From positions 1-64,000 of the forward strand of contig NZ_BCSR01000007.1 of assembly GCF_001570965.1 (NCBI RefSeq): a stretch of 64,000 nt of DNA, given 5' to 3'. The notes below the pieces were generated by a model, which made no database searches, was not told the origin of the DNA, and worked only from the letters and a program-made list of their open reading frames with translations. This document shows, in pieces, positions 30,464 to 33,881 of this stretch. Origin of the DNA: Janibacter corallicola NBRC 107790 (GTDB lineage: Bacteria > Actinomycetota > Actinomycetes > Actinomycetales > Dermatophilaceae). A program made the translations under genes and the position numbers. Each line of letters starts with the position of its first letter. Position 1 is the stretch's first letter.

Positions 30464-31549
30464 TCACCGGCTGGTCATCTCCGTGCGGACGGCCTCGGCG
30501 AAGGCGTCGACGTCGGCCTCGGTCGTGTCCCAGGCGCACATCCACCGGACCTGGCCGGTCGTCTCGTCCCAGAAGTAGAAGCGGAAGCGCTCCATGAGCC
30601 GCTCGCTCGCGACGCGGGGGAGGATGGGGAAGACCGCATTGGCCTCGACCCGGGTCACCAGCCGCACCCCCTCGATGCCGGCCACGGCGTCGGAGAGCCG
30701 GCGGGCCATCGCATTGGCGTGCAGGGCGTTGCGCCGCCACAGGTCCCCCTCGAAGAGGGCGATGAGCTGGGCGGAGATGAAGCGCATCTTGCTCGCCAGC
30801 TGCATCGACTGCATGCGCAGCCAGACGAGGCCCGCGACCCGCTCGGGGGAGAGGACGACGACCGCCTCGGCGAGCATAGCGCCGATCTTCGTGCCGCCGA
30901 GGGAGAGGATGTCGACCCCGACGTCGGTGGTCAGCTCGCGCAGCCCGACGCCCAGGGCGGCAGCGGCGTTGGACAGGCGGGAGCCGTCCAGGTGCAGCAC
31001 CCAGCCACGCTCGTGGACCGCATCGGCGACCGCACGGATCTCGGCCGGGGTGTAGACCGTGCCGACCTCGGTGGAGTTGGTGATCGAGACGATCCCGATC
31101 TGGGCGAAGTGCTCGTCGCCGGTCCGGTCGGGGTAGGCGGCGATGAGCTCGGGTGTGAGCTTGCCGTCCGGGGTGTCGATGACGTTGACCCGCAGCCCGC
31201 CGATCCGCTCCGGAGCGCCGGCCTCGTCGGCGTGGATGTGGGCGGTCGAGGTGGCCAGCACCGACGCCCAGCGGGGCGTGGCCGCCTGCAGGGCGAGGAC
31301 ATTGGCCCCGGTGCCGTTGAAGACCGGGTAGACCTCCACCGCCGCGCCGAAGACCTCACCGAGCACCTCGTTCAGGCGGGCGGTGTACACGTCCTCGCCG
31401 TAGGCGACCTGGTGCCCGCCGTTGGCGGCGACGATCGCCGCGAGCACCTCGGGGTGGATCCCGGCGTAGTTGTCGCTGGCGAAACCCCGCTCGGCGGGGT
31501 CGTGGATCGGAGCGAAGGGGGTGGGCTCGGTCGTGGTCGTGTCGGTCAC
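30464..31549 (-). CDS. Low-specificity L-threonine aldolase / beta-eliminating lyase family
   Basis: PLP enzyme splitting threonine (or allo-threonine) to glycine and acetaldehyde. 361 residues: FASDNYAGIHPEVL, YGEDVYTARLNEVLGEVF, NGTGANVLALQA, AHIHADEAGAPE, LHLDGSRLSNAAAALG and the PLP lysine in DILSLGGTKIGAML. The GTG at 31549 overlaps the stop of the upstream DUF6421-like gene (GTGA), so the two are coupled. The same frame is open upstream, antisense to nothing and in another frame of the neighbour, and is not coding. Confidence 0.9.
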   Translation of the reverse strand: MTDTTTTEPTPFAPIHDPAERGFASDNYAGIHPEVLAAIVAANGGHQVAYGEDVYTARLNEVLGEVFGAAVEVYPVFNGTGANVLALQAATPRWASVLATSTAHIHADEAGAPERIGGLRVNVIDTPDGKLTPELIAAYPDRTGDEHFAQIGIVSITNSTEVGTVYTPAEIRAVADAVHERGWVLHLDGSRLSNAAAALGVGLRELTTDVGVDILSLGGTKIGAMLAEAVVVLSPERVAGLVWLRMQSMQLASKMRFISAQLIALFEGDLWRRNALHANAMARRLSDAVAGIEGVRLVTRVEANAVFPILPRVASERLMERFRFYFWDETTGQVRWMCAWDTTEADVDAFAEAVRTEMTSR

Positions 31550-33777
31550 GCCGACATCCTGCCTTCCTGCTCGAGGGAGCGGGAGTCCGCCCCGGACTCC
31601 TCGGCCCGCGGGTCGTGGGTGCCGGTGAGGCCCCGGGTGGAGTCGATGACGGGGGCGAGCTTCTTGCGCAGCGCCTCGAAGAAGACGTTGAGCGGGAACT
31701 CGTCGGGCAGCACGGCGTCGTTCAGGCCCTTGCGGGGACCGTCGAGGGGGAGGCCGGCGGCCCCCTTCGCCCAGGCGGACGCCGGGTGCGGCGCGACGTA
31801 CCGGCTGATGAACTCGTGGGCGGCCATCCAGTGGCCCACCTTCGAGCGGTCGATGCCGTCGCGGTAGAGCCGCTCCACCTCGTCGGAGAGGGCGACCACG
31901 GTCTGCGGCACCCGGCTCCAGTCGAAGGTCAGGCGGTTGTCGGTCCAGCGCAGCGCGTCGTGCTGGTGCAGCCACGCGAAGAGCAGCTGGCCGCCGAGGC
32001 CGTCGTAGTTGCGGTGGCGCTCGCCGGTGACGGGGAAGCGGAAGCCCCGGTCGAAGATGATCGCCAGCTGCACCGCGCGGGCGTAGGGGTGGCCCTCCTC
32101 GGCGAGCCGCACGCACTGCCGGAAGGTGTTCAGGTCGCAGCGCAGCTCCTCCAGCGCGTACATCCAGTACGGCATCCGCTGCTTGATCATGAAGGGGTCG
32201 AAGGGCAGGTCCCCGTGGCTGTGGGTGCGGTCGTGCACGAGGTCCCACATGGCGAAGGCGGACTGCGCCAGCTCCTGGGAGGCCACGAGCCGCTCGCCCT
32301 CCGGCGGCAGCTCGAGGTCGAGGATCTCCGCGGCCGCGGCGGTGACCCGGCGGAAGCGGGCGGCCTCGCGGTCGGAGAAGATTGCCCCCCAGTGGAAGGT
32401 CGGCACCTCGCGCACCGCCACCGTCTCGGGGAAGAGCACCGCGGAGTTGGTGTCGTAGCCGGGGGTGTGGTCGAGGAACTGCACCGAGAGGAACATCGGG
32501 TTCTCGAAGTCGGCCTCGACACCCGCGAGCCAGTCCGGCCAGAAGGTGGAGAGGAGCACGGCCTCGAAGACACGGTCCGGGTTGCCGTTCTGGGTGTACA
32601 TCGGGAAGAGGACGAGGTGCTCGGCGCCGTCGACGCGGTGGCGGTCGGGCCGGAAGGCCTGCAGACTCATCAGGAAGTCGGGCACGCCGAAGCCGCCGTC
32701 GACCCAGCGCTGCAGGTCGACCGGCAGCGCGGCGAGGTAGTCCGCGTCGTGCGGGAAGCGCGGGGCGAGCTCGCCGACCCGCGCGATCATCTCGGCCACG
32801 AGTGCCGCGGCCCGCTCCCGGTCCGCCTCGGGGCGAAGGGAGCCGTCCGTCGCCTGGAGCAGGCGCAGCTCCTCCACGGCGGCCTTGAGCGCGTGCCACT
32901 CCTCGGGGACCGCCCTTCGAGGCTCAGCGCCGGGGGCGCTTCGCACCTCAGGGACCGCCCCCGAACCGGTTGCTGAGGTGCGAAGGCCGCCTCCGGCCGG
33001 AGCCTCGAAGCGCCGGGACCCGTTCCCTGCCCACGTGATCAGGTTGACCCAGAACTCCTCGTGGTCCAGCTCGCCGATGGAGTCATCGCCCACGAGGTCG
33101 GAGTCGGCGAGCACGACGACGCGTCCCTGCCCGTGCTCGAGGGTGACGGCCAACGGCTGGCCGGCGGGGTGGGCGGTGCCGCTGGTGCGGGCGAGGACGC
33201 GGGCTGTCGGTGCACCGGAGGTGTCGATCGTGCCGGCGCGGTAGAAGCAGAGCTCCTCGATCCCGGCCATGACGCCCTGGCCGGGGCCGGCGTCGGTCTC
33301 GGCGAGGACCCAGGTGGCGTTGGCGTGGTGGCGGTGCCCGCCGTCGCGGGACTCGTGGACGAGGGTGGAGACGAGGTGCAGACCGAAGCGCGCGAGCACC
33401 TCGCCGATGTTGTTGCCGTGCGAGTCCTGGTCGCACTCCCCGAGGACGACGAGCCCGCCGCCGGCGACCACGTGCTCGGTCACGGCATCGATCTCGGCGG
33501 GGCTCAGGACCGGGGGCAGGTCGCCGGCCACCCGCTCGCTCGCCGCCGCGGCGAGGTGGGGGAGGACGAGGACGTCGACACCCGCGAGCGCCTCCGGGGT
33601 CAGCTCACCGCTCTCGTGGGCGCGCACGTCGCTGCCCCGCTCGCGCAGCACGGCGACCGAGCGCGCGAGGCTGGCATCGGCCGGGTTGGCGGGGTTCATC
33701 CGCTCGGCGACCGCGGGGTCGATGGACCAGGCGCTGCTGTGCGCCTGGTCGAGCAGGACATGGGTGAACGGGGACAC
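31546..33777 (-). CDS. Large two-domain protein: N-terminal GATase/DUF4350-like, C-terminal DUF6421-like
   Basis: A 743-residue cytosolic protein. The first 270 residues look like a glutamine-amidotransferase-type Rossmann fold (VLLDQAHSSAW, DVLVLPHLAA, GGGLVVLGE, GRVVVLADSDLVGDD), as in DUF4350 proteins. From about 330 the sequence matches my memory of actinobacterial DUF6421 (HLVLFPMYTQNGNPDR, DHTPGYDTNSAVLFPE, LVHDRTHSHGDLPFDPFMIKQRMPYWMYALEELRCDL, His/Asp-rich, possibly metal-binding). Function unknown. The linker of about 33 residues is encoded by two REP-like elements. GTG at 33777 is chosen from GGAGG 9 nt upstream. Coupled to the threonine aldolase. Confidence 0.72.
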   Translation of the reverse strand: MSPFTHVLLDQAHSSAWSIDPAVAERMNPANPADASLARSVAVLRERGSDVRAHESGELTPEALAGVDVLVLPHLAAAASERVAGDLPPVLSPAEIDAVTEHVVAGGGLVVLGECDQDSHGNNIGEVLARFGLHLVSTLVHESRDGGHRHHANATWVLAETDAGPGQGVMAGIEELCFYRAGTIDTSGAPTARVLARTSGTAHPAGQPLAVTLEHGQGRVVVLADSDLVGDDSIGELDHEEFWVNLITWAGNGSRRFEAPAGGGLRTSATGSGAVPEVRSAPGAEPRRAVPEEWHALKAAVEELRLLQATDGSLRPEADRERAAALVAEMIARVGELAPRFPHDADYLAALPVDLQRWVDGGFGVPDFLMSLQAFRPDRHRVDGAEHLVLFPMYTQNGNPDRVFEAVLLSTFWPDWLAGVEADFENPMFLSVQFLDHTPGYDTNSAVLFPETVAVREVPTFHWGAIFSDREAARFRRVTAAAAEILDLELPPEGERLVASQELAQSAFAMWDLVHDRTHSHGDLPFDPFMIKQRMPYWMYALEELRCDLNTFRQCVRLAEEGHPYARAVQLAIIFDRGFRFPVTGERHRNYDGLGGQLLFAWLHQHDALRWTDNRLTFDWSRVPQTVVALSDEVERLYRDGIDRSKVGHWMAAHEFISRYVAPHPASAWAKGAAGLPLDGPRKGLNDAVLPDEFPLNVFFEALRKKLAPVIDSTRGLTGTHDPRAEESGADSRSLEQEGRMSA
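32913..33010. repeat. Head-to-head pair of REP-like elements inside a coding sequence
   Basis: Unit A (32913-32957) starts CCCTTCGAGGCT and ends CCTCAGGGACCG; unit B (32967-33010) is inverted, CGGTTGCTGAGG to GCCTCGAAG. Perfect arms: CTTCGCACCTCAG (32939-32951) with 32973-32985, and CTTCGAGGCT (32915-32924) with 33001-33010. The pair is in frame and encodes a Gly/Ala/Pro/Ser-rich linker of the surrounding gene. It shares end motifs with the single unit at 25843-25880. Confidence 0.8.
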
Positions 33778-33881
33778 GGGGACCACCCTCCAGGACGAGA
33801 TGCGGGATTTCCGGCACCTTCAGGATCTCAGAACAGGATGATCTTCGCCAGTTTCCGCCTGGCCATGCAGGATTTGTGACG

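What the first reader, a model, noticed from the sequence alone, without database searches (positions are those of the whole stretch)
32913..33010. REP pair captured in frame as a protein linker
The 98-bp pair lies within the DUF6421-like gene without breaking it and encodes a Gly/Ala/Pro linker exactly between two domains. Coding REP insertions are rare, and here one may have helped to create or tolerate a domain fusion.
Basis: seen in the sequence. Interest (0 to 1): 0.6.

Follow-up and report, generated by a model that had tools for sequence, protein, structure and literature searches.

The report
Palindromic repeat pair inside protein linker
A pair of short repeated palindromes, normally found between genes, sits in frame in the floppy link between two halves of an enzyme-like protein; the two halves were joined long before, and related species carry different repeats at the same spot, so this is a good example of a known but little-studied way in which repeats lengthen proteins.

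Summary
Window 32913-33012 carries two inverted ~45-bp REP units, from a family with 20 sampled sites in this genome. They lie in frame in a 746-aa minus-strand gene and encode residues 259-292. AlphaFold2 leaves 260-290 at pLDDT below 50 between two folded domains: a ThuA/IFT52-like N-domain and a DUF6421 (PolE-like) domain.

The fusion idea fails. The same two domains are joined in 48 of 62 matched family genomes and in 50 of the 80 best named loci. None of 66 such genes outside the genus shows this REP family in its linker.

What is real is recurrent REP decoration. Seven of 15 same-genus linkers carry a REP signature, in both orientations and three frames. All seven matches of 12 bits or more among 81 genes lie in linkers. 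Genes with 97-98% identical flanks carry different REPs. REPs also sit in frame in MenE, RecC, XdhC and CobBC.

Intragenic REPs in flexible linkers are described (PMC3733652), as are Rickettsia palindromic elements. This is a new member of that kind, in an actinobacterial genus without a detectable Y1 (RAYT/IS200-type) transposase.

The parts
31546..33786 (-). Host gene, 746 aa: ThuA/IFT52-like N-domain + linker + DUF6421 (PolE-like) domain
   Evidence: Open ORF; Pfam PF19985 705 bits, PF14258 27.5 bits (below its cut-off); AlphaFold2 pTM 0.86; Foldseek to PolE and IFT52 N-domain
33037..33507 (-). N-terminal domain core (residues 94-250), DUF4350/ABC_transp_aux/ThuA/IFT52-like
   Evidence: weak, below cut-off; 5fmr, 5fms; Foldseek E 9e-11 to 1e-9
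32890..33027 (-). Inter-domain linker (residues 254-299), 46 aa here; 19-37 aa in 65 of 66 fused genes scanned outside the genus
   Evidence: pLDDT below 50 at 260-290
32913..32957 (-). REP unit B, forward on the coding strand, encodes AVPEVRSAPGAEPRRA
   Evidence: REP HMM 36.5 bits, model made without this site
32958..32967 (.). 10-bp spacer between the two inverted units
32968..33012 (+). REP unit A, reversed relative to the coding strand, encodes RFEAPAGGGLRTSAT
   Evidence: REP HMM 37.8 bits
31618..32901 (-). DUF6421 domain (residues 296-723)
   Evidence: PF19985 E 4e-212; PolE crystal structures 9j3g, 9j2e
32149..32235 (-). HDRTH-X23-E, fits the HE/DXXHX(21-23)E metal motif of the PolE/DUF6421 family (residues 518-546)
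   Evidence: motif as given in PMC12614342 (passages)

Best explanation
An inverted pair of REP units, from a family dispersed through this actinobacterial genus, sits in the coding sequence for a disordered linker between two anciently fused domains (ThuA/IFT52-like, and the PolE-like DUF6421 domain). It stays because most REP frames lack stops (3-6 of 6 frames open per unit, 5 in 9 of 14 units), because the net length change kept the frame, and because a flexible Gly/Ala/Pro/Arg-rich stretch of varying length is harmless there. The linker is a recurrent REP site in the genus: units have been gained, lost or exchanged among close species while the domains evolve under purifying selection. The same decoration occurs in MenE, RecC, XdhC and CobBC. 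Shown: family identity, frame, position, variation between orthologues, purifying selection on the flanks. Inferred: that the insert is neutral and that it arrived by insertion. Unknown: what moves the units.
For: REP family copies in the own genome and matches in 14 of 16 genus genomes. HMM hits of 12 bits or more among 81 fused genes: 7 in linkers (6,663 nt), 0 elsewhere (163,962 nt). 7 of 15 genus linkers beat all 200 shuffles each. Different orientations and frames at one site. G007 and G012 have 97-98% identical flanks, but linkers with different REPs: 50% identical over the longer one, 80% over aligned bases. Linker at pLDDT 30-34 in AlphaFold2, neighbouring blocks 78 and 83 and then 97 and 94. 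Flank dN below dS. A clean 45-nt in-frame REP insertion in MenE in G005 and G013, absent from the 12 other readable orthologues. The fusion is far wider spread than the REP.
Against: No protein or transcript data. In the own genome only 1 of 20 sampled sites is coding. The nearest relatives in the gene tree (G001, G004, G005, G013) are only about 80-82% identical at protein level, so the exact insertion event here cannot be read. No mobilising enzyme was found. G005 and G013 linkers show only weak REP likeness (4.2 and 3.9 bits; 2 and 1 of 200 shuffles do as well). Not every REP-less linker is slow: G009/G011 linkers are 94% identical with flanks at 89-91%, but G001/G004 linkers are 80% with flanks at 91-93%. 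Poor alignment over the insert may by itself lower pLDDT (not checked).
Confidence: 0.85

Rival explanations
1. The REP pair helped to create the fusion of the two domains, for example by recombination between REPs flanking two separate genes.
For: The REP lies between the domains. Loci matched only in the DUF6421 part exist: 14 of 62 family genomes and 30 of the 80 best named loci; whether these have a diverged N-domain was not tested.
Against: Both domains in 48 of 62 family genomes and 50 of 80 named loci; no linker match to this REP family in 66 of 66 fused genes outside the genus, nor in G001, G002, G004, G009, G010 and G011 inside it.
Confidence: 0.02
2. The stretch is an ordinary fast-evolving low-complexity linker that resembles a REP by chance because the genome is G+C rich.
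For: Linker length varies in other genera too, and one Nonomuraea linker is expanded by a tandem repeat.
Against: 0 of 200 shuffles reach the score in 7 species; 79% identity over 111 bp to a copy elsewhere in the genome, E 4.5e-21.
Confidence: 0.02
3. The pair has a selected function at the RNA level: the long mRNA hairpin at the domain boundary slows the ribosome so that the N-domain folds first, and REPs are kept at such boundaries for that reason.
For: Very stable hairpin at a domain boundary; REPs also lie between the domains of XdhC and CobBC.
Against: 8 of 15 genus orthologues have no clear REP there, and REP-bearing ones differ in units, orientation and frame; RecC and MenE inserts fall inside Pfam domain matches, not between domains.
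Confidence: 0.06
4. One REP insertion in the genus ancestor, with all differences now seen due to decay and deletion, rather than repeated insertion or exchange.
For: Window, G003 and G007 units share orientation and frame (FEAP) across both main clades; the G005/G013 linker aligns with the second G007 unit and its tail (by eye); the window unit B and the G015 unit share orientation and frame.
Against: G012, G008 and G006 units belong to another subfamily read in another frame, and the G012 gene is 97-98% identical to that of G007 on both flanks; decay alone does not turn one subfamily into a full copy of another.
Confidence: 0.3

Closest known systems
Intragenic REPs of the GTAG and CGTC superfamilies (PMC3733652; section 15 and the first part of section 17 read, further passages)
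   Same: Short palindromes, often dimers or groups encoding 20-30 aa, in frame in genes, proposed to be tolerated in flexible linkers or loops; recBCD among their targets; different REPs at about the same site of recB in two Xanthomonas species.
   Different: Units here lack the GTAG tag and carry CGTC only in some cases and internally; actinobacterial host. The main text of the paper does not contain the word Actinobacteria.
Rickettsia palindromic elements, RPE (PMC10969869, passages read)
   Same: Repeat palindromes inserted in frame in unrelated genes.
   Different: RPEs are given there as about 150 bp with a conserved encoded peptide; here ~45-bp units are read in at least three frames.
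RAYT-associated REPs / REPINs / BIMEs (search listings and abstract starts only)
   Same: Inverted pairs of dispersed REP units, mostly outside genes.
   Different: No Y1 transposase (PF01797) match in 16 of 16 genus genomes, whereas the control search found it in E. coli.

Membership tests
REP family (dispersed short palindromes) | Many dispersed copies of a 20-50 bp imperfect palindrome, mostly between genes | tested here: met
   20 sampled sites in G000, 19 of them not scored as coding; matches in 14 of 16 genus genomes
GTAG/CGTC REP superfamilies | GTAG or CGTC tag at one end of the unit | tested here: not met
   GTAG/CTAC in 0 of 14 units; CGTC/GACG in 4 of 14 (L161, L164, L165, L166), internal. 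Units were tested as cut by the seed; some lack their first bases (alignment)
RAYT-associated REPs | A Y1 transposase (PF01797) in the genome | tested here: not met
   0 of 16 genus genomes; control positive in 5 of 14 named genomes, E. coli among them
Rickettsia palindromic elements | Conserved reading frame and peptide in coding copies | tested here: not met
   FEAP, LRDA and VPEV frames at one linker
Intragenic (protein-decorating) REP | REP wholly inside an intact gene, in frame, absent from some orthologues | tested here: met
DUF6421 / PolE family | PF19985 match and HE/DXXHX(21-23)E motif | tested here: met
   705 bits against a cut-off of 25; HDRTH-X23-E
DUF6421 / PolE family | Fe/pterin-dependent amino-acid oxidase activity | not testable with these tools
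   Reported for PolE (PMC12614342, passages read)

The most novel reading that the evidence does not exclude
In this genus REPs act as a standing generator of linker diversity: certain permissive loops and linkers (DUF6421 and RecC above all) are continually rewritten by REP gain and exchange between species whose flanking coding sequence is up to 97-98% identical, by a mobiliser other than the known Y1 transposases.
Probability: 0.2. Interest if true: 0.65.

Novelty: new member of a known kind. Interest (0 to 1): 0.42.

Why it matters
It extends protein decoration by palindromic repeats to an actinobacterial genus and gives a comparative series at one site: the same linker with no REP match, one REP, an inverted pair, another subfamily and other frames. 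RecC and MenE add further cases, MenE with a clean 45-nt empty/filled comparison. The questions of how often such repeats enter genes, what moves them without a detectable Y1 transposase, and whether the added linker matters become directly testable. It also shows that the domain fusion is not the REP's doing.

Tried and rejected
Rejected: REP as the cause of the fusion. Rejected: chance palindrome. No support for a Y1 transposase as mobiliser; other kinds of transposase were not searched. Considered: a short insertion target in MenE. The empty site in several orthologues already reads CCCTTCG, the first bases of the REP in that orientation, but this is one case and no target duplication was established.

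Led nowhere: the organism's name. The search for related loci returned nothing that I could tie to the window's genus (its note says records near the window may be left out). A contig of another genus of the family (G090) has the same length as a Marihabitans asiaticum record (L043), so the window's genus belongs to the family of Marihabitans. My guess of Janibacter is recalled and untested. The class-level spread of the fusion (Conexibacter and Patulibacter being outside Actinomycetes) is recalled taxonomy.

Rows dropped or limits. My first linker parser misplaced linkers in many genes and was replaced by alignment columns. Scripts 16 and 29 ended with errors (16 after printing 13 linkers). 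In one search some rows were read in a wrong frame or in part: RecC G001 and G002, MenE G006 and G014, six XdhC loci, CobBC G006. They are not in my counts from that call; re-examined the XdhC and CobBC loci whole. The survey of REP sites covers sites from thresholded and partly cut tables of four genomes. The seven stretches (exact matches to an 11-base end, examined only) are not among the 83. 'Coding' there means a codon-usage score above 10 on both flanks, trained on the window's ORFs. The G012 total includes the DUF6421 linker and two sites in one kinase frame. One G013 site (L228) was found only in the re-scan. Weaker sites (an SRAP gene and a kinase in G004, and own-genome REPs in the open 5' part of PhoX, NAD-synthase and acetyltransferase frames) are not counted. 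The named collection returned the best 80 of 577 relatives.

Full report
Observation. The window holds an ORF on the minus strand, 31546-33786, 746 aa. Inside it lie two nested exact arm pairs in a stretch that folds with z -5.95 against shuffles. BLAST of 116 bases around it against the window's own genome (3.1 Mb, 92 contigs) gives 33 matches at E 0.001 or better, two of them the site itself, the best other place at 79% over 111 bases. I collected 14 REP units from other places of this genome. They run CGGTCCCTGAGGTGCGA - inner GC-rich stem - GAGCCTCGAAGGGC, about 45 bp. An HMM of these 14 units, built without the window site, finds two units here on opposite strands: 32968-33012 at 37.8 bits and 32913-32957 at 36.5 bits.

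Host protein. Pfam gives DUF6421 (PF19985, 705 bits) from residue 296 and weak DUF4350/ABC_transp_aux/ThuA signals before residue 250, all below Pfam cut-offs. A profile of 35 relatives matches PolE crystal structures and the IFT52 N-domain, and Foldseek with the AlphaFold2 model agrees (PolE 9j3g E 1.5e-13; IFT52 5fmr E 8.8e-11). The protein has HDRTH-X23-E, which fits the motif reported for the DUF6421 family; one member, PolE, is reported as an Fe/pterin-dependent isoleucine desaturase (PMC12614342, passages read). The REP codes for residues 259-292. AlphaFold2 (mean pLDDT 85.3, pTM 0.86) falls below 50 at 260-290; the neighbouring ten-residue blocks are at 78 and 83 and the next at 97 and 94. 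Poor alignment over the insert may contribute to the drop.

Age of the fusion. A match was found in 15 of 16 genus genomes and 62 of 186 family genomes. Of the 62, 48 match in both domains (two of them, G013 and G019, in two pieces) and 14 only in the DUF6421 part. In a named collection, 50 of the 80 best loci match from residue 2-9 onwards and 30 only from residue 250-296 onwards; 577 relatives were found in all. The fused loci include Tsukamurella, Nonomuraea, Streptosporangium, Conexibacter and Patulibacter. A tree of 31 fused proteins, built without the linker, puts the window in a five-member clade of its genus. Linkers are 19-37 aa in 65 of 66 fused genes outside the genus; the exception, a Nonomuraea gene, has 73 aa through a tandem repeat. 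Genus linkers are 25-46 aa. The fusion is thus far more widespread than the REP, and I infer that it is older.

REPs in the same linker of relatives. I scanned 81 fused genes (15 of the genus, 66 outside) with the REP HMM. Seven matches reach 12 bits, all in linkers (window twice, G007, G012, G003, G015, G006); none lies in the other 163,962 nt. At 10 bits one match outside a linker appears. Against 200 dinucleotide shuffles per linker, seven of 15 genus linkers stand out: those six species plus G008 at 7.3 bits. G005 and G013 are weak (2 and 1 shuffles reach the score). G001, G002, G004, G009, G010 and G011 have no match of 3 bits or more. By BLAST the window REP also hits the linkers of G007 and G003, and the G012 linker holds a unit of another subfamily with many copies, for example 51 matches in G006. 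This HMM would not find unrelated REP families of other genera.

Turnover. The units are read in different ways: FEAP frame (window unit A, G003, G007), LRDA frame (G012, G008, and by its shared tail G006), and opposite orientation VPEV/LPEV (window unit B, G015). G007 and G012 have 97-98% identical flanks; their linkers are 50% identical over the longer one and 80% over the aligned bases. For comparison, the REP-less linkers of G009/G011 are 94% identical with flanks at 89-91%, but those of G001/G004 are 80% with flanks at 91-93%, so REP-less linkers can also run ahead of their flanks. A shared tail between the G005/G013 linker and the second G007 unit suggests that some REP-derived sequence is ancestral (judged by eye). 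I think that an old REP-bearing linker has been repeatedly rewritten. Single gain with decay keeps a probability of about 0.3.

Selection. Pairwise dN/dS of the window gene with five genus orthologues is 0.30-0.40 in the N-domain and 0.22-0.36 in the DUF6421 domain (computed). The gene is constrained on both sides of the insert.

Generality. I fetched stretches around listed REP sites in four genomes. After merging duplicates, 83 sites were scored (84 with the G007 linker; stretches left out). Coding flanks on both sides were found at 1 of 20 in the window's genome, 3 of 29 in G004, 4 of 13 in G012 (two in one frame) and 5 of 21 in G013. REPs are thus mainly outside genes, but coding copies are not exceptional in the genus. 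MenE has a clean 45-nt insertion in G005 and G013 and none in the 12 other readable orthologues. A stretch of RecC has REP matches of 10 bits or more in 8 of 13 readable orthologues, with different units per species; nine of the 13 beat all 200 mononucleotide shuffles, and the window's own RecC has no match. XdhC has a REP between its two Pfam domains in G012 and a match of 12 bits or more in none of the 15 other loci fetched; most of those loci are only about 57-75% identical and some may be paralogues. A CobBC fusion protein has a REP between its CobB and CobC parts in G013 (34.4 bits). Among the 16 loci fetched the only other match of 12 bits or more is in G003, outside the linker by my reading of its position, although the linker varies in length throughout. 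REP units leave 3 to 6 of 6 frames open, 5 in 9 of 14, which makes such insertions survivable.

Mechanism. The best-supported account is tolerated in-frame repeats in a disordered linker, with recurrent gain, loss or exchange. What moves the units is unknown: no PF01797 transposase was matched in 16 of 16 genus genomes, while the same search found it in E. coli. A role of the hairpin in pausing translation at the domain boundary is not excluded but is not supported by conservation.

Known work. PMC3733652 (section 15 and the first part of section 17 read; passages) describes REPs inside genes of several species, more than half of the inserts being dimers or groups that encode 20-30 residues. 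It names flexible linkers or loops as places where insertions may be neutral, notes recBCD as targets, and reports different REPs at about the same recB site in two Xanthomonas species. The review PMC10969869 (passages) describes in-frame Rickettsia palindromic elements. RepRanger (PMC12306157, passages) lists actinobacterial genomes; the words intragenic, within coding and coding sequence do not occur in its main text. Searches combining REP terms with Actinobacteria, Janibacter and intragenic, on palindromic elements in genes and for DUF6421 showed no report of this case in the listings that I saw; most subscription journals are not held. I file it as a new member of a known kind.

Noticed in passing
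RecC orthologues L247-L261; MenE L279-L293; XdhC L263; CobBC L231: Other genes of the genus carry in-frame REPs; RecC has different ones in most readable species, MenE a clean 45-nt one in G005 and G013.
   Followed up: partly
L022/L024 (G013:C1:1078672-1080788): The G013 DUF6421 gene matches in two overlapping pieces in different frames within the N-domain, as by a frameshift or a sequencing error.
   Followed up: no
L070 (Nonomuraea sp. PA05), gene residues about 240-310: The same linker is expanded to 73 aa by a tandem GAARDEAH-like repeat, an independent lengthening by another kind of repeat.
   Followed up: partly
L179 and L194 (G012 and G004): REPs at the end of the kinase domain of a histidine kinase in two species; in G012 the same open frame continues into a DUF4153 domain.
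   Followed up: no
L155, L157, L159, L161, L164: REPs of the window's genome overlap the 3' end of predicted coding frames, so the repeat would supply the last codons.
   Followed up: no
window 30464-31546 (-): The frame directly downstream of the DUF6421 gene looks like a low-specificity threonine aldolase (recalled from its sequence, not tested); many PolE relatives are reported to lie near amino-acid-modifying enzymes (PMC12614342, passage).
   Followed up: no
L023 (G002): The G002 gene, assigned to the window's genus, groups with genes of the Marihabitans-containing genus in the tree, and its genome gave no match to either REP query.
   Followed up: no
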